A stretch of DNA of 64,000 nucleotides from Pseudoxanthomonas sp. JBR18 (GTDB taxonomy: Bacteria > Pseudomonadota > Gammaproteobacteria > Xanthomonadales > Xanthomonadaceae). The notes beneath the pieces are model-generated. The model saw only the letters and a program-made list of their open reading frames with translations. It had not been told where the DNA came from and ran no database searches. Positions 4,002-60,972 of the stretch are shown in pieces. The stretch's first letter is position 1, and each line of letters begins with the position of its first letter. Both the position numbers and the translations under genes were made by a program. The stretch covers positions 1,426,001 through 1,490,000 of the forward strand of contig NZ_CP116339.1 in the NCBI RefSeq assembly GCF_028198165.1, in the 5' to 3' direction.

Positions 4002-4678
4002 GCGCCCGCCGCCGGCAGCCAGCCCTTGACCGCGTGCTCAATGGCGCCGCGCAGGTCGATCAGCTTGCGATGGAAGAAGTGACTGGTGTCGGGCATGCGC
4101 ACCAGCGTATGCGGGGCCTGGTCGCCGATCTCCTCCAGCCAGTCGTAGACGGCCTGCGGATCGACTACCTCGTCGGCGTCGCCCTGCACCACCAGCCAGC
4201 GCGACGGCGGCTGGATCCCGGAAAAATCCCAGCGTCCCGCCGGCGGCGCGATGGAGACCAGCACCTGCGGCTGCAGTGCGGCGCTGGCCTTGAGCGAAAC
4301 GTACGCGCCAAAACTGAATCCGGCCAGCCACAGCACCTTGTCCGGCTGCTGATCGCGGACCCAGGCGACCACCGCGGCCAGGTCCTCCTGTTCGCCGACA
4401 CCGTCGTCGAACTGGCCCTGGGACTGGCCGACGCTGCGGAAATTGAAGCGCACGGTCGTGATGCCCAGCTCGCGCAGCGCGCGCGCGGCCATCGTCACGA
4501 CCTTGTTGTGCAGGGTGCCGCCGTCGGTGGACAGGGGGTGGCAGACCACGGCAATGGCGCGGACGGCCGGGACGTCGGCCTCGGGTAGGTCCACGGCCAC
4601 CTCCAGGGCGCCGGCGGGCCCGTCCAGCAGCAAGGTGCCGGACGCGTTGGGGAATGCGGGGGTTGCCATGGGCGCCAT
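3998..4678 (-). CDS. Alpha/beta hydrolase (YcjY/DLH-like small hydrolase)
   Basis: Small cytoplasmic alpha/beta-hydrolase of unknown substrate. The nucleophile elbow GFSFG places Ser at about residue 122, the acid is in QGDADEVVD (near 168) and the catalytic His in PDTSHFF (near 200). The early HPLSTDGGTLHNK segment is typical of a widespread proteobacterial family. The true start is uncertain: ATG at 4676-4678 (MAPMATP) or 4667-4669 (MATPAFP); the longer upstream reading lacks family similarity. No clear Shine-Dalgarno precedes either, so it may be leaderless. The stop overlaps the zapE GTG by four bases. Confidence 0.85.
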   Translation of the reverse strand: MAPMATPAFPNASGTLLLDGPAGALEVAVDLPEADVPAVRAIAVVCHPLSTDGGTLHNKVVTMAARALRELGITTVRFNFRSVGQSQGQFDDGVGEQEDLAAVVAWVRDQQPDKVLWLAGFSFGAYVSLKASAALQPQVLVSIAPPAGRWDFSGIQPPSRWLVVQGDADEVVDPQAVYDWLEEIGDQAPHTLVRMPDTSHFFHRKLIDLRGAIEHAVKGWLPAAGA

Positions 4679-4928
4679 GATAACGCCGACGCCTGCGCAG
4701 GCCCGATCAAGCGCTCCGCGGCGACGGGCCAACTGCGGCGCGCTGCGTGGTCCAGGCACGCAGCGCCCGGTGCATCAGGGCAGTCCCGCAACCGAGACGC
4801 ACCTGGGTGCCCGGCAGCCCATAGCACGCGTGTGGGCCCGGACACAGCGACGCCGGCCCTCGCGGACCGGCATCGGTGTGGGCCGGCGTGCTCCGCCCCG
4901 GCCCGTGGCGCCCCTCCCAGGGAGTTGT

Positions 4929-6590
4929 CTACTTGGTGATATCCACGTGTTTGGTTTCACGCAGGAAGATCATGCCCAGCACCAGGGTCATGACCGAGAT
5001 GCCGATCGGATACCACAGGCCGTAGTACATGTTGCCGGTGGCGGCCACCAAACCGAAGGAGATCGTCGGCAGGAACCCACCGAACCAGCCGTTGCCGATG
5101 TGGTACGGCAGCGACATGGAGGTGTAGCGGATGCGGGTGGGGAACAGCTCCACCAGCCATGCGGCGATGGGGCCATAGACCATGGTCACCAGCAGAGCCA
5201 GGACGAACAGCACCGCCACCAGCATCGGCTTGTTCATCCGCGCCGGATCGGCTTTCTCCGGATAGCCCGCCGAGGTCAGGGCGCCTTTGAGCTGGCTGAC
5301 GAACGCATCGGATCTGGCCTTGCTTTCTTCCTTGGACAGCCCACCGCCTTCGTAGGCGTTGATCTGGTTGCTGCCCACGTTGACGGCGGCCACCGTGCCC
5401 GGCGGCGCGGCCTTGACCGAGTACGGCACGCCGGCCTTGGTCAGGGCGGTGGCGACGATGTCGCAGGAGCTGGTGAAGGACTTCTTGCCCACCGGATCGA
5501 ACTGGAAGCTGCAGGTCTCCGGATCGGCCTGGATGACCACCGGGGCGCTGGTCCGGGCTTCCTCGATGGCGGGGTTGGCGTAATGGGTCAAGGCCTTGAA
5601 CAGCGGCATGTACAGCACCGCGGCTAGCAGGCAGCCACCCAGCACGATGACCTTGCGGCCGATGCGGTCGGACAGCCAGCCGAAGAACAGGAAGAACGGC
5701 GTGGCGATCAGCAGCGCGCCGGCCAGCAGCAGCGCACCGGTGGTGGCATCCACCTTCAGCGCCTGGGTCAGGAAGAACAGCGCATAGAACTGCCCGCCAT
5801 ACCAGATCACCGCCTGGCCGGCGGTGGCGCCCAGCAGCACCACCAGCATCAGCTTGAGGTTGCCGCCCTTGAGGCTGTCGCGGAACGGCATCTTGGAGCC
5901 CTTGCCTTCGGACTTCATCTGCTGAAACAGCGGCGACTCGCTGAGCTGCATGCGGATCCAGACCGACACCCCGAGCAGGATGATCGACACCAGGAACGGG
6001 ATGCGCCAGCCCCAGGCCTCGAAGGTTTCGTTGCCCAGCAGGGTCCGGCAGGCCAGGATGATGGTCAGCGACAGGAACAGACCGACCGTGGCGGTGCACT
6101 GGATGAAGCTGGTGTAGAACCCGCGCTTGTTGGCGGGCGCATGCTCGGCCACATAGGTGGCCGCGCCGCCGTACTCGCCGCCCATGGCCAGACCCTGGGC
6201 CAGGCGCAAGATAATCAGGATCACCGGCGCGGCAAAGCCGATGCTGGCGTAGGACGGCAACACGCCCACCAGGAAGGTGGACAGGCCCATGATCAGGATC
6301 GTCACCAGGAAGGTGTACTTGCGGCCGATACGGTCGCCCAGGCTGCCGAAGAAGGCCGCGCCGAACGGCCGCACGAAGAAACCCGCGGCGAAGGCCAGCA
6401 ACGCGAAGATGAAGGACGTGGTCTCGTTGACGCCGCTAAAGAATTGCTTGGCGATGATCGCCGCCAGCGAGCCATAGAGGAAGAAGTCGTACCACTCGAA
6501 CACGGTACCCAGGCTGGACGCCAGGATCACGCGCTTGTGGCCGGAGGTCAGCGTGCCCCCTGAGGAATGCGAAGAAGCAGTGGTGGCCAT
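4929..6590 (-). CDS. MFS transporter, metabolite:H+ symporter (MHS) family, with an inserted soluble loop
   Basis: Twelve-helix major facilitator of the ProP/ShiA-like MHS family. It carries the FFVRPFGAAFFGSLGDRIGR loop motif between helices 2 and 3, the GGEYGGAATYVAEH motif, and a second-half equivalent GWLSDRIGRK. It is longer than usual (553 residues) because about 110 residues (roughly 345-455) are inserted between helices; this insert is soluble-looking and contains a Cys pair (PETCSFQF and SSCDIV). The gene sits 15 bases downstream of a porin on the same strand and divergent from acs, so a role in acetate or other short carboxylate uptake is a reasonable inference. The substrate is not shown by sequence. 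Confidence 0.88.
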   Translation of the reverse strand: MATTASSHSSGGTLTSGHKRVILASSLGTVFEWYDFFLYGSLAAIIAKQFFSGVNETTSFIFALLAFAAGFFVRPFGAAFFGSLGDRIGRKYTFLVTILIMGLSTFLVGVLPSYASIGFAAPVILIILRLAQGLAMGGEYGGAATYVAEHAPANKRGFYTSFIQCTATVGLFLSLTIILACRTLLGNETFEAWGWRIPFLVSIILLGVSVWIRMQLSESPLFQQMKSEGKGSKMPFRDSLKGGNLKLMLVVLLGATAGQAVIWYGGQFYALFFLTQALKVDATTGALLLAGALLIATPFFLFFGWLSDRIGRKVIVLGGCLLAAVLYMPLFKALTHYANPAIEEARTSAPVVIQADPETCSFQFDPVGKKSFTSSCDIVATALTKAGVPYSVKAAPPGTVAAVNVGSNQINAYEGGGLSKEESKARSDAFVSQLKGALTSAGYPEKADPARMNKPMLVAVLFVLALLVTMVYGPIAAWLVELFPTRIRYTSMSLPYHIGNGWFGGFLPTISFGLVAATGNMYYGLWYPIGISVMTLVLGMIFLRETKHVDITK

Positions 6591-6605
6591 GGAGGTCTCC
6601 GGGTT

Positions 6606-8000
6606 TTAGAAGCTGTACTTCACGGATGTCTGGATGCGCTTGAGGTCGCCGGACCGGTCGTCTTCGAGATCGCGGCGGCCCCAGGTAAGTTCTGCACCCA
6701 GGTCGAGCTTGGGGAACGGGGAATAGATCAGGTTGGCGTGCCAGGACTGCGACCGCTCGGTCACGCCGTAGCCGGTGTACTGCGGGTCGTTGTCCAGCAG
6801 CGCGGCCGAATACATCAGATTGCCGCGCAGCTGCGGCGAGAACAGGTGGCGCCAGGCGACGTAGCCGCCATAGGCGTTTTCGACATGCAGATCGGCGTCT
6901 GCATCGAGCACGGTGTCCGGCGCCAGGCCCAGGGCCATGTAACGGCCGACGCCCTTGCCGCCATTGACCTGGAAGCGCAGGTCGTCGCTCTTGCCCATGT
7001 TGAGCTTGCCCGACACGCTCAGCGCGCCGCCGCTCTTGTCCTGGTCCAGGTACTTGAACTGCCGCAACAGGCCCGCCACGCTGAAACTGCCCCAGTCGCC
7101 CTTGGTCGCCCACTTGGCAGTCAGGTCCGGCAGCGCGTTGTCGCCGGAGTTGGAGCGCGCACCGGTCAAATAGGCGCTCATGGTGGTCTGCGGATTCTCC
7201 AGGGACATGGAGAAGCCCCCGTTGGTATAGCGCAGCTGTGCCTGGCGCACGAAGATCACGCCATCGGTGGGCCCAAGGAAGTCCACCGCGTCCGGCAGCG
7301 CCTCGGGGGCCATGAAGTTGGTCCAGGTCTGGCCGGCCAGCCAGTGGTTCCAGCTGACGTAGGCATGACGCAGGGTCAGCGCATAGGTGTTGGTCGAGGT
7401 CTCGTTGCCGGCCAGCGTGTTGCTGCCGCCACCGAACATGTCCGCCTCGATGTACGCCTTGAGCTTGTCGCCGTTCTCGGTGACGGTATCCATCGAGACG
7501 TTGAAGCGCGAGAACTGCGCGTGGAAGTCGGTGTAGCCATCGCCGCCGTCGGCGCCGGCACCGCCCACCGGAATGGAGGCCGGGACGTAGAACAGGCGGC
7601 CGGCCGAGCCGTCGGTGATGCGGCCATCGGAGGTGTCGGTGTACATGCCATCGAACTTGATGAAGCCACCGAAGGTGAAGGTGGTGTTCGGCATCGCGCC
7701 GGAGACGATGGACTGGGACTGAATCGGCGCCTTGCCGGCTGGGGCCGTGGCCACCGAGGTGCGTACCTGGTCGATCTGGGTCTGGGCCTGGGTGACCTGG
7801 CCCTGGGTCTGGGTCAACTGCGACTGCTGCTGTTGCTGCGCATTGAGCAGCGCCTGGACCTGTGCCTCGAGCTGGGCCACACGGGCCTCCAGTTCCTTTT
7901 CTTTCTTGGTGTCAGCCAATGCAACGCCAGGCAGCAGCAAGGCGATCGTCAACGCAGCCGTCAGCGGCCGGCGCGACATCGAAGCGATGCGTGTGGTCAT
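6606..8000 (-). CDS. DcaP-type trimeric outer-membrane porin
   Basis: Outer-membrane channel of the DcaP family, whose known members favour negatively charged solutes such as dicarboxylates. An N-terminal signal peptide (LTAALTIALLLPGVALA) is followed by a heptad coiled coil rich in Gln (residues about 32-80; the TQTQGQVTQAQTQIDQV region). An amphipathic beta-barrel follows, starting at FTFGGFIKFDGMYT and ending in a terminal aromatic (TSVKYSF), as expected for Bam recognition. Length is 464 residues. It is first in a two-gene unit with the MHS symporter and shares its upstream region with acs, implying co-regulated substrate uptake across both membranes. Confidence 0.9.
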   Translation of the reverse strand: MTTRIASMSRRPLTAALTIALLLPGVALADTKKEKELEARVAQLEAQVQALLNAQQQQQSQLTQTQGQVTQAQTQIDQVRTSVATAPAGKAPIQSQSIVSGAMPNTTFTFGGFIKFDGMYTDTSDGRITDGSAGRLFYVPASIPVGGAGADGGDGYTDFHAQFSRFNVSMDTVTENGDKLKAYIEADMFGGGSNTLAGNETSTNTYALTLRHAYVSWNHWLAGQTWTNFMAPEALPDAVDFLGPTDGVIFVRQAQLRYTNGGFSMSLENPQTTMSAYLTGARSNSGDNALPDLTAKWATKGDWGSFSVAGLLRQFKYLDQDKSGGALSVSGKLNMGKSDDLRFQVNGGKGVGRYMALGLAPDTVLDADADLHVENAYGGYVAWRHLFSPQLRGNLMYSAALLDNDPQYTGYGVTERSQSWHANLIYSPFPKLDLGAELTWGRRDLEDDRSGDLKRIQTSVKYSF

Positions 8001-8101
8001 GTCCCTTCTCTCCCAGGAAGTCCGCGTCGTACACGGTTGGAACGTCCTTTCCCCGAGGACGTGGGCGCAGACTGCGCGTGCCCCATGACCGCAACCATTC
8101 G

Positions 8102-8140
8102 TCTTTGGTCGAAACGCGTCTCACTTTAAGACCAAGGTCT
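8102..8140. promoter_or_regulatory. Candidate operator between the porin and acs: AGACCAAGGTCT dyad plus TTTGGTC half-site
   Basis: A dyad AGACCAAGGTCT at 8129-8140 and a related half-site TCTTTGGTC at 8102-8110 lie in the 257-bp divergent region between the porin and acs genes. Position and symmetry suit a LuxR-type response regulator such as the one encoded just after acs (10348-11016). The assignment is inference. Confidence 0.45.
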
Positions 8141-8257
8141 AACGGGCTTGCTGCGTTGCGCAAACCACTGATCGGTCAAACTTGTGGACGACGAAAAGGC
8201 TGGCCGGACCCCACCCCGGCTTGTCCATATCCACCGTGTTGAGAAGGAGGTAGTTCC

Positions 8258-10201
<1,944 letters not shown>

Positions 10202-35403: not shown

Positions 35404-35587
35404 GCGTGGTGCACGTCCCGCCCCCGTCCCTCGACAGGCTTGGAGCGGCGTTGGGGTTCGAGCATGGGAAGGCGGCGTCGCAAAACCCGCGACCGCGCGA
35501 ACATGCGTGGTCGGGCCTGCTTCACCAGCCATCTCCCCCTCGGAGACTCCGCGGCCGGCACCGCGCGATGTGCTTGCGCGCGGTTTG

Positions 35588-35775
35588 TCGGCAGGTCTTC
35601 GGACTCATGGGCGCGAAGGCGTCTGGCCTTCTCCTAATCCGCCGCTTCCCAAGGCCGAAAGGCCTCAGTGCTGTGTGGCGGGGTCGTTCCCAAATACCGC
35701 TGCGGGGCAGTGCCGGAGTGGGCCGTCATGGCCGCACCGGCTTCCCTTTTCATCCGGGGAGTAGCGTTCCCCGGA
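35588..35775 (-). promoter_or_regulatory. Cobalamin (B12) riboswitch in the nrdA leader
   Basis: Read on the minus strand: GGGAAGCCGGTG, then CCGGCACTGCCCCGCAGCGG (the B12-box core), a CACTG element, GGGAAG, and the closing ATGAGTCCGAAGACCTGCC. This is the ordered consensus of AdoCbl riboswitches. It ends about 185 bases before the nrdA ATG, leaving room for an expression platform (35404-35587). Expected effect: B12 represses the B12-independent class Ia reductase. Confidence 0.93.
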
Positions 35776-35783
35776 ACCGACGA

Positions 35784-35832
35784 CCCCAAGATAGTGGGGT
35801 GGGTTCACCCCGTCAACGCCAAATATTGTGGA
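35784..35832. promoter_or_regulatory. nrdR boxes: Pair of NrdR-box-like palindromes
   Basis: CCCCAAGATAGTGGGG at 35784-35799 and CGCCAAATATTGTGGA at 35817-35832 resemble the NrdR box (ACACWATATWTWGTGT-like). Their centres are 33 bp apart, about three helical turns, the usual paired arrangement. The first covers the promoter -10, the second abuts the -35, as expected for a repressor of ribonucleotide reductase genes. Confidence 0.7.
35788..35816 (-). promoter_or_regulatory. Predicted sigma70 promoter of nrdA
   Basis: On the minus strand, TTGACG (35811-35816) and TATCTT (35788-35793) are separated by 17 bases. Transcription would begin near 35781, just upstream of the cobalamin riboswitch. Confidence 0.7.
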
Positions 35833-46313: not shown

Positions 46314-47225
46314 TCAGGGCCCGTCTTCGCCCGCACGGCTGCGTGCCTTGCCCGGACCGATGCCCTCGAGCCGCTTGAAGAACCGCCGGAACGCCGCCTC
46401 GCTGCGATAGCCCAGCATCTCGGCCACCGTGGCCACCGACAGGCGTCGGTTGCCCAGCAGGCGCCGGGCCTCGGTGGCGCGCCACTGGGACAGGTACTGC
46501 ACCGGCGGCAGGCCGACGGTGGCGGTGAACAGCTCGGCGAACGCGGTGCGTGACATGCCGGCCTCGTGCGCCATCGACTGGATCGTCCAGTCCTGGCCTG
46601 GATGCGCATGCACTGCGGCCAGCACGCGCGCCAGGCGCACGTCTGTCATCGCCGCCAGCAGGCCACGCGGACGCTCGGTGGCGCGCACGTATTCGCACAC
46701 GGCCATGGTGAACAGCGAATCGGCCAGCTTGTTCTGCACCATCTGCCGGCCCCAGCGCCGGTCGCGGCTGGTCTCGGCCAGCATCTGCGCCAGTTGCCGG
46801 AAGGCGGGGCTGCTCTGCTCGGAACGCACCACGAAGCACGCCGGCAGCGCGCCGAAGATCGGATTGTTGGCGCCGGAGACGAACTCCAGCTCGCCGCACA
46901 GCATGTTGGTATCGCCCGGCTCGTCGGCCGGCGGCAGGTGCGGATCGGGCGAGGACGAAAGCAGGTGCTGCACGCCGCTGGGAAAGACGATCAGATCGCC
47001 GTGCCGCAGGTGCACCGCGTGTTCCAGCGCCTCGCCGCTGACCCAGCACTCGCCCCGGGTGAGTAGGTGAAACTGGCCAAAGCGCGTGGCCGGCTCGCGC
47101 TCGAACCAGGTCCCGCAGAAGCGCACGTCGGCGGTGATCTCCACGCGCATGCGATAGCCGGCCAGCACGGTCTCCAGCACGCTGTCGCGTTCTTCGTCGG
47201 TCTGCAGGGCGAGGGGCGCGGACAT
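46314..47225 (-). CDS. AraC-family transcriptional regulator with cupin_6 sensor domain
   Basis: 303 residues. An N-terminal cupin (about 1-180, FHLLTRGECWVSGEALEHAV, GDLIVFPSGVQH) is followed by two helix-turn-helix motifs in the C-terminal AraC domain (SMAHEAGMSRTAFAELFTAT; VATVAEMLGYRSEAAFRRFF). ATG at 47225; the longer frame to 47402 would run through the intergenic dyad. Divergent from the bufferin operon, with a 77-bp nested dyad between, so it is a candidate regulator of that operon. Confidence 0.91.
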   Translation of the reverse strand: MSAPLALQTDEERDSVLETVLAGYRMRVEITADVRFCGTWFEREPATRFGQFHLLTRGECWVSGEALEHAVHLRHGDLIVFPSGVQHLLSSSPDPHLPPADEPGDTNMLCGELEFVSGANNPIFGALPACFVVRSEQSSPAFRQLAQMLAETSRDRRWGRQMVQNKLADSLFTMAVCEYVRATERPRGLLAAMTDVRLARVLAAVHAHPGQDWTIQSMAHEAGMSRTAFAELFTATVGLPPVQYLSQWRATEARRLLGNRRLSVATVAEMLGYRSEAAFRRFFKRLEGIGPGKARSRAGEDGP

Positions 47226-47260
47226 GGCCGCATCGTAGTCGCTCGACGATGGCCCCGACC

Positions 47261-47337
47261 ATGCCCATTCGTCCGCCCTGACGGTCTGCACGTCCGTACG
47301 TGCATGAACATCGTGCCCCACGCGGACGGATGGGCAT
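47261..47337. promoter_or_regulatory. Nested dyad between the araC-type gene and the bufferin operon
   Basis: Outer arms ATGCCCATTCGTCCGC (47261-47276) and GCGGACGGATGGGCAT (47322-47337) are inverted with one mismatch. Centred between them is the near-palindrome TGCACGTCCGTACGTGCA (47287-47304), whose right half resembles the arms in GNNCGNANGNGCAT form. The layout suggests an array of regulator sites controlling both divergent genes. Confidence 0.65.
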
Positions 47338-47434
47338 ATCCGCAGAACGCGCGGGAATGGTCCGCCGCCTCGCCTTAGCGCCCAATGCGTCCACCGGCCC
47401 ACTGCCGGTCACCACCACTTACGAGGACGCCATC

Positions 47435-47734
47435 ATGCGCAACGCTATCGCCACTTCCGGCCTGTCCCTGGCCATCGCCGCCGCCGCCCTGTTCGCCGGC
47501 GCACCCGCCGCCCATGCCGCCGAGCACGGCAAGGCCGAAATGGGCCACTGCATGGGCGCAAACGCCTGCAAGGGCCAGGGCGCGTGCAAGAGCGCAGCCA
47601 ATGCCTGCAAGGGCCAGAACGCCTGCAAGGGCCAGGGCTTCACCGAAGCCACCGCCAAGCAGTGCAACACCGTCGGCGGCAAGTTCGAAAAGCCGATGCC
47701 GGCGCCCAAGGCCGAGGAAAAGGCCAACAGCTGA
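47435..47734 (+). CDS. bufA: Bufferin-type (BufA2-like) Cys-rich RiPP metallophore precursor
   Basis: 99-residue precursor. N-terminal Sec-type signal (LSLAIAAAALFAGAPAAHAA), then a core with six cysteines in a repetitive pattern: GHCMGANACKGQGACK, SAANACKGQNACKGQGF and KQCNTVGG, followed by a Lys/Glu/Pro tail. Bufferins, described in Caulobacter, are exported peptides whose cysteines are modified by an MNIO enzyme so that they bind copper in the periplasm. The ATG at 47435 has GAGGA upstream. Next genes are the MNIO enzyme and its partner, the defining context. Confidence 0.9.
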   Translation: MRNAIATSGLSLAIAAAALFAGAPAAHAAEHGKAEMGHCMGANACKGQGACKSAANACKGQNACKGQGFTEATAKQCNTVGGKFEKPMPAPKAEEKANS

Positions 47735-47753
47735 CCGTCGCATCGCCGCTCGC

Positions 47754-47774
47754 GCCCGGCGTGCCGCGCCGGGC
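47754..47774 (+). other. Hairpin between bufA and bufB
   Basis: GCCCGGCG and CGCCGGGC form an 8-bp GC stem with a 5-base loop in the 70-bp gap. No T-run follows, so it is not a complete terminator; it could protect or partly terminate the precursor mRNA so that more precursor than enzyme is made. Confidence 0.6.
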
Positions 47775-47804
47775 CGCGACCGGCCTTCCAAGGAGCGCCA
47801 CACG

Positions 47805-48644
47805 ATGACTGCCCTGCACGGCTTCGGCCTGGGCCTGCGGCCCCAACACTACGGCGACCTGCTCGCCGGCGATGCCCCGGTGGACTGGCTGGAACTGCTC
47901 AGCGAGAACTACATGGTTGCCGGCGGCCGCCCGTTGCACATGCTCGACCAGTTCGCCGAGCGCTGGCCGCTGGCGCTGCACGGCGTGTCGCTCAACATCG
48001 GCGGCAGCGATCCGCTGGACCGCGACTATCTCGCTGCGCTGGCCCGGCTGGTGCGCCGCGCACGGCCCCACATCGTCTCCGACCATCTGTGCTGGAGTCG
48101 CCACGGCGGCGTGCAGCTGCACGACCTGCTGCCCCTGCCGCAGACCGAGGCGACGGTCCATCACGTCGCCTCGCGCGTGCGTCAGGTGCAGGACGCGCTG
48201 GGCACGCAGCTGGTGCTGGAGAACGTGTCCAGCTATGCGCGCTTTGCCGACGACACGCTGGACGAGGCGCAGTTCCTCGCGGCGATCGCCAGCGAGTCGG
48301 GCTGCGGGCTGCTGCTGGACGTCAACAACGTCTACGTCAACGCACATAACCACGGCCTGGACGCACAGGCCTATCTGGACACGCTGCCGCGCGATGCCGT
48401 GCGCCAGATCCACCTGGCCGGACACAGCGCCGATGCGCTGGGCAGCGGCCTGCTGGTCGACACCCACGACGCGCCGGTGAGCGAAGCGGTGTGGGCGCTG
48501 TATGCGCAGGCGCTGCGCCGCTTCGGTCCGGTACCGACCATGATCGAGCGCGACGACCACATTCCTCCGCTGGCCGAGCTGCTGGCCGAGCTCGACATCG
48601 CGCGCGGCATCGCAGCCGATGCGCTGCAGGCGCGTGCGGCATGA
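47805..48644 (+). CDS. bufB: MNIO-family (DUF692) multinuclear iron oxidase, bufferin maturase
   Basis: 279 residues, TIM-barrel DUF692 protein of the MbnB/BufB class. These enzymes use two or three irons and oxygen to rework peptide cysteines. Conserved metal-ligand segments are seen in order: LELLSENYM, ALHGVSLNIGG, IVSDHLCWSRHGG, LENVSSYARF, LLLDVNNVYVNAHNHG, IHLAGH, VDTHDAPV and MIERDDHIPP. AAGGAG ribosome site. Stop overlaps the next gene's ATG (ATGA). Predicted to modify BufA cysteines with the help of BufC. Confidence 0.94.
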   Translation: MTALHGFGLGLRPQHYGDLLAGDAPVDWLELLSENYMVAGGRPLHMLDQFAERWPLALHGVSLNIGGSDPLDRDYLAALARLVRRARPHIVSDHLCWSRHGGVQLHDLLPLPQTEATVHHVASRVRQVQDALGTQLVLENVSSYARFADDTLDEAQFLAAIASESGCGLLLDVNNVYVNAHNHGLDAQAYLDTLPRDAVRQIHLAGHSADALGSGLLVDTHDAPVSEAVWALYAQALRRFGPVPTMIERDDHIPPLAELLAELDIARGIAADALQARAA

Positions 48645-49441
48645 ACGCCTCGCCTGCCTTGCTGGACCATCAGCAGACCTTGCAGGCCTGGCTGCTGCAT
48701 GGCGACGCCGCCATCGCGCCGCGAATCGACGCCACGCCGGTACGCGGCGAAACCGTGCACGACCGCCTGCGGATCTATCGCGACGCCTATGCGCTGCGCC
48801 TGATCGAGGTGCTGGGCCAGGACTTCCCGGTCTTGAAGGCGCTCCTGGGCGAAGCGCGGTTCGACACGCTGGCCCGCGCCTATCTGCAGGCACATCCGTC
48901 CACGCAGCCGTCGGTGCGGCATTTCGGCGCGCGCTTTGCCGGCTGGCTCGCCCACCATGACCTCGACGCGGCGGCGGTGGAACTGGCCCGGTTCGAATGG
49001 ACGCAGGGCGAGGTCTTCGACGCGGCCGACGACCACGCCGTGAGCCTGACCGACATGGCCGCCGTGCCGCCACAGGACTGGCCACGGCTGCGGTTCATGC
49101 TGGCCTCGCACCTGCGCTGGCTCACGCTGTCCAGCCATGCGCCGGCGCAGGTCACCGCGCATGCGGCCGGCGACAGCGTGCCAGAAATGCGCGTGGCGAC
49201 GCCGGCCACCTGGCTGCTGTGGCGCGAAGCCTTCGCCGTGCACTGGCGACGGCTCGACCCCGACGAAGCCGACGCGCTGCAGTCCGTGCGGACTGGTCAG
49301 TGCTTCGGCGATCTGTGCACGCAACTCGCGCATGCGCACGGCCCGGAGGCGCCGCTGCGCGCCGCCGGCCTGCTCAAACGCTGGATCCACGACGGCCTGG
49401 TGGCGGCGCTACGCGTCATCCCCGCCGATCACGCCCACTGA
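48641..49441 (+). CDS. bufC: DUF2063-family MNIO partner protein (BufC-like)
   Basis: 266 residues. N-terminal DUF2063 domain (about 5-95): LDHQQTLQAWLLHGD, RLRIYRDAYALRLIEVLGQD, FPVLKALLGEARFDTLARAY. It is followed by a helical C-terminal domain. Such proteins always accompany MNIO enzymes and are thought to present the precursor peptide. Despite the database label 'putative DNA-binding', a recognition role is likelier here. Four-base overlap with bufB. Confidence 0.92.
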   Translation: MNASPALLDHQQTLQAWLLHGDAAIAPRIDATPVRGETVHDRLRIYRDAYALRLIEVLGQDFPVLKALLGEARFDTLARAYLQAHPSTQPSVRHFGARFAGWLAHHDLDAAAVELARFEWTQGEVFDAADDHAVSLTDMAAVPPQDWPRLRFMLASHLRWLTLSSHAPAQVTAHAAGDSVPEMRVATPATWLLWREAFAVHWRRLDPDEADALQSVRTGQCFGDLCTQLAHAHGPEAPLRAAGLLKRWIHDGLVAALRVIPADHAH

Positions 49442-49468
49442 ACTCATCTCCCCCAACAGGAGCCTGCC

Positions 49469-49954
49469 ATGCAATCCACTTCCACCCGCCTGCGCCTCTC
49501 CGCGCTGTCCTTCCTGCAGCGCATCGACTGGCTGGGCCCGCTGCTGGTGCGGCTGGTGTTCGGCTATTTCTGGGCCGAGACCGGCTGGGCCAAGCTGCAC
49601 AACCTGGAGTTCTTCACCGGCCGCTTCATGGAGTGGGGCATCCCGTTCCCCGCCTTCAGCGCCGCGCTGTGCGCCGGCACTGAGTTCATCGGCGGCGTGC
49701 TGATCCTGCTCGGACTGGCCACGCGCCTGACCATGATCCCGATGATCATCAACATGCTGGTCGCGCTGATCGTCGTGGTGCTGCCCGGCATCTCCACGCT
49801 GGATGAATTCGTCGAACTGGACGAGGTGCTGTACGTCACCGTCTTCGTCTGGCTGCTGACCGCAGGCCCGGGCCGCGCGAGCCTCGACCATCTGATCGCA
49901 CGGCGCTTGTCAGACAGTCCGCGTATACCCGACGCATCGCTCCCGGCGCGTTGA
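49469..49954 (+). CDS. DoxX-family membrane protein of the bufferin operon
   Basis: 161 residues, four predicted helices, with the DoxX pattern LLVRLVFGYFWAETGWAKLH, FFTGRFMEWGIPFP and AGTEFIGGVLILLGLATR. DoxX-like proteins are regular last genes of bufferin-type operons; their job is unsettled (redox or membrane-associated metal handling has been proposed). AGGAG site; 27 bp after bufC, so it is almost surely co-transcribed. Confidence 0.9.
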   Translation: MQSTSTRLRLSALSFLQRIDWLGPLLVRLVFGYFWAETGWAKLHNLEFFTGRFMEWGIPFPAFSAALCAGTEFIGGVLILLGLATRLTMIPMIINMLVALIVVVLPGISTLDEFVELDEVLYVTVFVWLLTAGPGRASLDHLIARRLSDSPRIPDASLPAR

Positions 49955-49961
49955 GGTCTGT

Positions 49962-49997
49962 ACAAAAAGCACAAAGCCGCCTCTCGGCGGCTCTGTG
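49962..49997 (-). terminator. Intrinsic terminator of the AIM24-family gene, possibly bidirectional
   Basis: On the minus strand AGCCGCC-GAGA-GGCGGCT is followed by TTGTGCTTTTTGT. It is 20-odd bases past the AIM24-family stop and between two convergent genes. Confidence 0.85.
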
Positions 49998-60397: not shown

Positions 60398-60639
60398 GTG
60401 GATGGATCCTCATTGCGTGTGGGCATTGAGGAACGAAGGAACCGCGCGCCACGCGTCCGGACTTCCGGCTGCGACGTGCCACGCCAGCGACCTTCGCCCC
60501 CGCGGGCGAACCGGATCCACTACGCGAAACACGCACGCTCACCCCGTCCCGCCCGCGGTCGACTGCAGGGAGCGGAGTGCCCGTGCCGCTCCCGCGAGCG
60601 GTGCCAGGTCGAAACGGAAGACCGGTCTGGGTCTTCCGG
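60398..60639 (-). other. metE leader downstream of the riboswitch (expression platform)
   Basis: 242 non-coding bases, GC-rich with several short stems (for example GGAAGACC/GGTCTTCC near 60616-60638). Presumably holds the terminator or ribosome-site sequestering structure, which I cannot resolve by eye. Confidence 0.5.
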
Positions 60640-60850
60640 CCGGGGCCGGTCTTCGGGCTCATGGACACGGCGTGGGACGCGCCACCTACTGTCCGCCGCT
60701 TCCCGGTGTCGCGTTGAAGCGACACCAGTGCTGTTGGCGGGGTTCGTTTCCAATAACCGCTGCGGGGCAGCTCCGGAATGGGCGCCCTCAGGCGCCTTCA
60801 CCGGATTCCCGTTTAATTCATCGCTTCATGGGGATGAAGCGATGAAACCT
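60640..60850 (-). promoter_or_regulatory. Cobalamin (B12) riboswitch in the metE leader
   Basis: Minus strand order: a stem TTTCATCGCTTCATCCCCAT with GAAGCGATGAA, GGGAATCCGGTGAAGG, GGAGCTGCCCCGCAGCGGTT (B12 box), CACTGG, GGGAAGCGGCGG and the closing ATGAGCCCGAAGACCGGCC. It resembles the nrdA-leader riboswitch element by element. About 240 bp remain between it and the metE ATG. Confidence 0.94.
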
Positions 60851-60972
60851 TCGGCCCGCGCACAGTATGCGGAGCGGCGGTTTGCGTCAAGCCGTGGAGG
60901 GGTCAGGACGCTGGACATGAAGCCTTGCCCGCGATCTGCAACCATGAGGGTTTTCCTGCGTGGGTTCGGCCG

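What the first reader, a model, noticed from the sequence alone, without database searches (positions are those of the whole stretch)
47435..49954. Bufferin-type copper-metallophore RiPP operon
A Sec-exported peptide with six cysteines in ACKGQ-type repeats is followed by an MNIO (DUF692) enzyme, a DUF2063 partner (four-base overlap) and a DoxX protein. This is the layout of the bufferin operons described in Caulobacter. The core repeat here (NACKGQGACK, NACKGQNACK) suggests several successive modification units in one chain. Copper binding and cysteine modification are inferred from the family.
Basis: partly seen in the sequence, partly recalled or inferred. Interest (0 to 1): 0.85.

Follow-up and report, generated by a model that had tools for sequence, protein, structure and literature searches.

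The report
Bufferin operon with AraC-type switch
This is a genuine member of a known family of bacterial copper-binding peptides (type-2 bufferins), and next to it sits a regulator gene with its own DNA binding sites that probably switches the operon on, a part that the papers read here do not describe.

Summary
In detail: bufA-bufB-bufC-doxX at 47435-49954, bufB/bufC overlapping by 4 bases. Curated models place bufA in BufA2 (86.6 bits, cut-off 60) and bufB among bufferin maturases (379.8, cut-off 310). It is a type-2 (6-Cys, "Cys-Lys") bufferin operon, a known kind, not the DUF2282 (Buf1) type.

A divergent AraC-family gene (46314-47225, minus) travels with the operon: its orthologue occurs in exactly the 9 of 38 congeners that carry this BufB; in an order-wide sample 20 of 21 genomes with it have BufA2, adjacent in all 20. 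The shared promoter holds 16-bp sites (CGGACGwTCGGGCATr): an upstream inverted copy and a weaker direct repeat at exactly +21 bp, as in araI1-I2. A matrix built from 15 loci of the window's family puts its top hit upstream of bufA in 21 of 21 Rhodanobacteraceae loci, where araC lies downstream of bufC.

Most likely this AraC protein activates the operon, perhaps as a thiol or Cu(I) sensor: four cysteines are near-invariant, one of them clade-specific. Inducer, copper binding and cysteine modification are untested.

The parts
46314..47225 (-). AraC-family regulator gene (Cupin_6 + HTH_18, 303 aa from ATG), divergent from bufA; proposed regulator of the operon
   Evidence: Pfam Cupin_6 113.6 and HTH_18 68.1 bits, both over cut-off; co-occurrence with BufB; AlphaFold mean pLDDT 92.5
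47260..47275 (-). operator O: upstream inverted copy of the 16-bp site (CGGACGAATGGGCATG on the minus strand)
47323..47338 (+). operator half-site I1 (CGGACGGATGGGCATA)
47344..47359 (+). weaker operator half-site I2, direct repeat 21 bp after I1
   Evidence: offset profile over 32 loci peaks only at 21; scores 5.1 in the window itself
47381..47386 (+). possible -10-like element CCCAAT (an AATG-containing element stands at a similar place in the related promoters); weak inference
   Evidence: sequence comparison; no consensus sigma-70 promoter found
47435..47734 (+). bufA: BufA2-type bufferin precursor, 99 aa, Sec-type signal peptide, six Cys
   Evidence: NF050166 86.6 bits, cut-off 60
47805..48644 (+). 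bufB: multinuclear non-haem iron oxidase (MNIO), bufferin maturase
   Evidence: NF050167 379.8 bits, cut-off 310; PF05114 364.8 bits; Asp250-Asp251; PDB relative 3bww
48641..49441 (+). bufC: DUF2063 partner protein (PME type 1)
   Evidence: PF09836 81.6 bits, cut-off 27.2; NCBIfam HvfC 63 bits, under its cut-off of 142
49469..49954 (+). doxX: DoxX-family membrane protein
   Evidence: PF07681 56.9 bits, cut-off 23.6; NCBIfam HvfX 71.6 bits, under its cut-off of 80

Best explanation
A type-2 bufferin operon under its own AraC-type activator. BufA is made with a Sec signal peptide. BufB (iron oxidase) with BufC (recognition partner) oxidises cysteines of the NACK motifs to heterocycles, most likely 5-thiooxazoles; the peptide is exported and holds copper (perhaps other soft metals) in the periplasm; DoxX assists at the membrane. 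The divergent AraC/Cupin_6 protein binds the sites O, I1 and I2 before bufA and, when its cysteines meet the signal (Cu(I) or a thiol oxidant), activates bufABC-doxX from I1-I2. Shown here: family membership, linkage of regulator and operon, and an operator that stays upstream of bufA where araC lies elsewhere. Inferred: the chemistry, the metal, activation rather than repression, and the inducer.
For: BufA2 and BufB curated models passed. BufB has Asp251 after the catalytic Asp, the feature given for Cys-Lys maturases in PMC13097082. AraC orthologue (72% identity or more) in exactly the 9 of 38 congeners with this BufB (69% or more). Order sample: 20 of 21 AraC-positive genomes have BufA2 over cut-off, adjacent in 20 of 20. 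Operator motif: information 25.3 against 13.4-14.4 in shuffled sets; top hit upstream of bufA in 7 of 7 and 17 of 17 out-of-family loci, 21 distinct; half-site repeat at exactly 21 bp in the average of 32 loci. In the genome only O and I1 are within 1 mismatch of the pattern.
Against: No expression, binding or metal data. 8 of 15 family genomes with BufA2 over cut-off lack this AraC, so Buf2 does not need it. One genome (G653) has the AraC without buf genes. 2 of 110 upstream regions of AraC-less Buf2 loci score as high as the weakest AraC-linked one. In the plain inverted-repeat test only 4 of 15 promoters clearly beat their own shuffles. The AraC-linked systems may share a single origin (p-AU 0.52), so the co-occurrence counts are not independent.
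Confidence: 0.75

Rival explanations
1. The buf genes are an ordinary Buf2 operon, and the AraC gene is an unrelated neighbour kept nearby by common descent.
For: Most of the AraC-linked loci could share one origin. In the 7 buf-less congener loci with an empty site both are missing together, which one deletion could cause.
Against: araC lies divergent from bufA in the window's family but downstream of bufC in Rhodanobacteraceae, and the same operator stays upstream of bufA in both. A neighbour without a role would not keep that site there. AraC-less Buf2 loci mostly lack it (2 of 110 reach the lowest AraC-linked score).
Confidence: 0.12
2. The AraC protein represses rather than activates the operon, or chiefly controls its own gene, and the metal response comes from another system.
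For: An upstream inverted O site is also where an autoregulation site would lie. The site I2 is weak in the window (score 5.1). No consensus promoter was found.
Against: The 21-bp direct repeat I1-I2 just before the presumed -35 is the activating geometry of the arabinose operon (recalled). In Rhodanobacteraceae the sites lie before bufA although araC is not there.
Confidence: 0.15
3. BufA works unmodified or binds another metal; the maturation genes are not used on it.
For: Precursor genes without maturation genes exist (PMC12452194). The related Legionella operon responds to gold as well as copper (PMC5413113 passages).
Against: Matches to bufB and bufC stand beside bufA in all 15 AraC-linked loci of the family, several of these loci being cut before the end of bufC.
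Confidence: 0.06

Closest known systems
Buf2 (BufA2) bufferins, Cys-Lys 'captophorins' (PMC12452194, PMC13097082)
   Same: Six-Cys precursor with Sec-type signal peptide and NACKG-type motifs; bufA-bufB-bufC order; DoxX; Asp251 in BufB
   Different: A divergent AraC/Cupin_6 regulator and its operator, not described in the parts of those papers that were read
Buf1 (DUF2282) bufferin operon of Caulobacter under sigma factor SigF (PMC12452194; PMC8224329 table)
   Same: Maturase, DUF2063 partner, DoxX, periplasmic copper role by inference
   Different: Precursor is not DUF2282 (no PF10048 match); no sigma or anti-sigma gene beside it; AraC protein instead
gig operon of Legionella (PMC5413113)
   Same: DoxX, DUF2063, MNIO and small exported peptide; metal response there, regulator unidentified
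   Different: No AraC partner was noted in the passages read; the gene order and host differ
RclR of E. coli (reactive-chlorine sensor, AraC family)
   Same: AraC family; Cys110 aligns with RclR Cys89; RclR's target RclA is a Cu(II) reductase (PMC7464077 passages)
   Different: 27% identity; 104 bits against the RclR cut-off of 400; Cys177 where RclR has Arg; other target genes
AraC-araBAD operator (recalled)
   Same: Two direct half-sites 21 bp apart before the promoter, and a further upstream site at whole helical turns
   Different: Another site sequence; the far site is inverted and only 29-71 bp away

Membership tests
Buf2 / BufA2 bufferin | Precursor passes the curated BufA2 model | tested here: met
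   86.6 bits, cut-off 60
Buf2 / BufA2 bufferin | Six conserved Cys and a Sec-type signal peptide | tested here: met
   Cys 39, 45, 51, 58, 64, 77; signal peptide judged by eye
Buf2 / BufA2 bufferin | Order bufA-bufB-bufC with MNIO and DUF2063 partner | tested here: met
Buf2 / BufA2 bufferin | Cysteines modified by BufBC, copper bound, protection from copper | not testable with these tools
   needs expression and mass spectrometry
Cys-Lys captophorin | Asp after the catalytic Asp in the maturase | tested here: met
   Asp250-Asp251, compared with PMC13097082
Buf1 / DUF2282 bufferin | DUF2282 (PF10048) precursor | tested here: not met
   no PF10048 match at E 0.1
Oxazolin / EGKCG type | EGKCG repeats in the precursor and HvfB-type maturase | tested here: not met
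   no EGKCG in the sequence; HvfB model 279.6 bits against cut-off 360
AraC/XylS regulators | C-terminal HTH_18 domain with an N-terminal cupin | tested here: met
RclR | Passes the curated RclR model | tested here: not met
   104.4 bits against 400
RclR | Redox pair Cys21 and Cys89 | tested here: inconclusive
   Cys89 aligns with Cys110; Cys21 aligns with Val34, the window's Cys37 lying three residues on

The most novel reading that the evidence does not exclude
The AraC-type protein is a dedicated Cu(I)- or oxidant-sensing activator of a bufferin operon, with a sensor built from four cysteines (Cys37, 60, 110 and the clade-specific Cys177), acting through an arabinose-type O-I1-I2 operator. 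It would be the first AraC-family bufferin regulator and would define a separately regulated branch of Buf2 systems in the order of the window's genome.
Probability: 0.4. Interest if true: 0.7.

Novelty: new variant of a known kind. Interest (0 to 1): 0.5.

Why it matters
How type-2 bufferin operons sense metal is open. In Caulobacter the MNIO operons listed in one table follow SigF (PMC8224329); for Legionella the authors inferred an unidentified regulator (PMC5413113 passages). This locus supplies a candidate regulator, its binding sites to the base, and a simple prediction: a reporter plus the regulator in E. coli would show whether an AraC-family protein senses copper or oxidant stress. 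The motif also lets one tell this regulated branch of Buf2 operons from the rest. The operon alone would be one more member of a well-described family.

Tried and rejected
Buf1/DUF2282 and EGKCG/oxazolin identity: rejected by family models. RclR membership: rejected, under cut-off. Two independent gains of the regulator: suggested by the first BufB tree, but four rows there (L010, L013, L016, L026) were wrongly labelled as lacking AraC; with corrected labels (75 rows; 39 AraC-less rows chosen by me from those held) the tree needs two changes of the label, and one clade including Rudaea L002 is not rejected, so the claim is dropped. A wider regulon: the pattern gives 26 matches at up to 2 mismatches in the genome against 35 for the reversed control; only O and I1 have 1 or fewer, so no further targets are claimed. 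AraC homologues at about 37-42% identity (L166-L170, L173, L190/L253): no buf gene found in the stretches held, some of which are contig ends. A class-wide sample (369 genomes) gave one such 42% homologue besides the window's own. PDB fold search of the regulator model gave general AraC-family folds (ToxT, Rns, AraC) with low full-length TM-scores. Sequence search of the PDB gave only HTH-domain relatives. Sigma-70 promoter scan: none. A first test of O-I1 spacings left out seven loci without a fixed rule, so it was replaced with a score rule.

Full report
OBSERVATION. BufA is 99 aa with six Cys at 39, 45, 51, 58, 64 and 77. The curated NCBIfam models name BufA "BufA2 family periplasmic bufferin-type metallophore" (86.6 bits, cut-off 60) and BufB "MNIO family bufferin maturase" (379.8 bits, cut-off 310). 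BufC has DUF2063 (81.6, cut-off 27.2) and DoxX its Pfam domain (56.9, cut-off 23.6); both fall short of the NCBIfam HvfC and HvfX models (63 against 142; 71.6 against 80). BufB is the only PF05114 match found in the genome, and BufA2 is matched once there.

WHAT KIND. It is a type-2 bufferin. PMC12452194 (introduction, results sections on precursors, bufferins and partner proteins, and discussion read) describes Buf2 precursors of 51-367 residues, six Cys in 90% of cases, with precursor, MNIO, DUF2063 and DoxX genes as the core, and sigma/anti-sigma genes in Buf1 but not in Buf2 clusters. PMC13097082 (parts 1 to 3 of 4 of the results read) sets up a Cys-Lys group of precursors, shows 5-thiooxazoles in EGKCG-type products, and reports Asp in place of Phe after the catalytic Asp in Cys-Lys maturases. 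The window's BufB has Asp250-Asp251 there, the same number as given for BufB2. Of PMC12538549 (Microbulbifer) only the abstract and outline were seen. Nothing in the peptide itself is unusual: 2335 homologues at E up to 1e-3.

A divergent gene at 46314-47225 (minus) encodes an AraC-family protein (Cupin_6 113.6 bits, HTH_18 68.1 bits; AlphaFold mean pLDDT 92.5). Genus: of 38 genomes, BufB at 69% identity or more is in 9 and the AraC at 72% or more is in the same 9, the next-best AraC hit dropping from 456 to 120 bits (Fisher 6e-9, kinship ignored). At the same chromosomal place, 7 of the 9 congener loci inspected that lack this BufB have the patatin gene beside the AIM24 gene, with neither araC nor buf; the other two (G178, G179) have an arsenic-type gene group between them (Pfam ArsB, ArsR-type HTH and ArsC checked for G178 only). 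Family sample of 149: this AraC at 66% or more in 7, all 7 beside Buf2; BufA2 over cut-off in 15, so 8 lack this AraC. Order sample of 299: AraC at E up to 1e-60 in 21, of which 20 have BufA2 over cut-off, against 46 of 299 overall (Fisher 1.5e-17, kinship ignored); the two are adjacent in all 20 (3, 17). The exception, G653, has the AraC but no buf gene in the 6.4 kb held and no BufA2 match.

THE OPERATOR. Gibbs sampling on 14 of 15 AraC-bufA promoters (one near-copy left out) gave CGGACGwTCGGGCATr, information 25.3; 5 of 6 restarts found this site in shifted registers and one found another. Six shuffled sets (two shorter restarts each) gave 13.4-14.4. In the window, O (47260-47275, minus) and I1 (47323-47338, plus) form an inverted repeat with 15 of 16 matches, not reached in 60 shuffles. 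In that plain test only 4 of the 15 promoters clearly beat their shuffles (0-1 of 60 as high); 3 had 4-7 and 8 had 13 or more. With a leave-one-out matrix, 36 sites scoring 8 or more lie in the 15 promoters against 0.25 in shuffles; kinship inflates this.

The out-of-family test matters more. In Rhodanobacteraceae, araC lies downstream of bufC and doxX is divergent from bufA. The matrix trained only on the window's family has its best hit of the whole locus between doxX and bufA in 7 of 7 loci and in 17 of 17 (an 18th locus, L251, has no buf genes). Rudaea L002, with no AraC in the stretch held, has no such hit there.

Averaged over 32 loci, the matrix score downstream of I1 peaks only at offset 21 (0.65; offsets 16-44 otherwise at -24 or lower), the spacing of araI1-I2 (recalled). 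In the window itself I2 scores only 5.1. The spacing from O to I1, for the 20 of 32 loci whose O scores 8 or more, is 29-30, 41, 51-52, 60-63 or 70 bp, near whole helical turns (R 0.83; for the 9 distinct spacings 0.81, reached by 3 of 2000 random sets). For the 12 loci with weaker O there is no phasing.

Control: 110 upstream regions of Buf2 loci without this AraC (some loci present twice) have a median best score of -0.6; 2 reach 13.2, the lowest value of the 32 AraC-linked loci, a threshold taken from the data. One of the two, Nevskia L009, has the site at a fitting place before bufA and may keep a regulator elsewhere. In the window's genome only O and I1 are within one mismatch of the pattern, so the regulator looks local.

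SENSOR. Among the 120 listed homologues (of 607; one is the window's own protein), Cys37 and Cys60 are kept in 119 and Cys110 and Cys177 in 120; all four are kept in 7 of 7 Rhodanobacteraceae proteins. In 11 paralogues Cys37, 60 and 110 are kept in 9, 8 and 9, but Cys177 is Arg in 11 of 11 and in E. coli RclR. Cys110 aligns with RclR Cys89, one of the two cysteines whose oxidation activates RclR (PMC7464077 passages); RclR Cys21 aligns with Val34, three residues before Cys37. A thiol-oxidant or Cu(I) sensor fits; neither is shown.

HOW IT MOST LIKELY WORKS. Shown: gene content, family membership, linkage, conserved operator. Inferred from position: I2 (47344-47359) ends about where a -35 would lie for a -10-like CCCAAT at 47381-47386, as in arabinose-type activation, though no consensus promoter was found. 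Inferred from the family: BufBC turns cysteines of the ACK motifs into thiooxazoles, the peptide leaves by Sec and holds copper. Other soft metals are possible, since the related Legionella operon responds to gold and copper (PMC5413113 passages).

NOVELTY. The operon alone is a new member of a known kind. The AraC regulator and operator are not in the parts read of PMC12452194 and PMC13097082, and the word AraC has 0 occurrences in the text of four MNIO papers in the listing. Two further searches listed no paper on an AraC regulator of such operons. PMC13097082 mentions transcriptional regulators near these clusters in a supplementary table that could not be opened, and most subscription papers are not held, so priority is not certain.

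LIMITS. Kinship makes the counts non-independent: one origin of the AraC-linked systems is not rejected (p-AU 0.52 with L002 in the held group). There are no expression, binding or metal data for this locus.

Noticed in passing
L188 (G178) about 4396-6710 and L189 (G179) about 6972-9282: At the place where the window has araC-buf-doxX (between the patatin and AIM24 genes), two congeners carry an arsenic-resistance group (ArsR-type, ArsC, ArsB; Pfam checked for G178). The site may be an exchange spot for metal-resistance modules.
   Followed up: partly
L174 8436-9497, L177 9585-10586, L180 8432-9313: 3 of the 8 family Buf2 loci without the orthologous AraC have another, distant Cupin_6 AraC gene (30-34% identity) within about 3 kb of bufC. 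Possibly regulators of the same kind; not tested.
   Followed up: partly
L175, L176, L179: These Buf2 loci hold two BufA2 domains in one open frame, which fits the 12-Cys type of PMC12452194.
   Followed up: no
window 35573-35796 (-) and 60627-60868 (-): Two cobalamin riboswitches (Rfam RF00174, 108.5 and 96.3 bits).
   Followed up: no
L251 (G653) 499-1335: The AraC homologue (47%) without any buf gene in the 6.4 kb held, and without a strong operator hit: either an orphan left after loss of the operon or a regulator of something else.
   Followed up: no
P0143: A close BufA homologue of Solilutibacter silvestris is named 'Silver efflux pump' in UniRef, probably a wrong name for a bufferin precursor.
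   Followed up: no
window 49970-49997 (-): Terminator-like hairpin between doxX and the convergent AIM24-type gene; its T-run is on the minus strand, so it suits the AIM24 gene.
   Followed up: no
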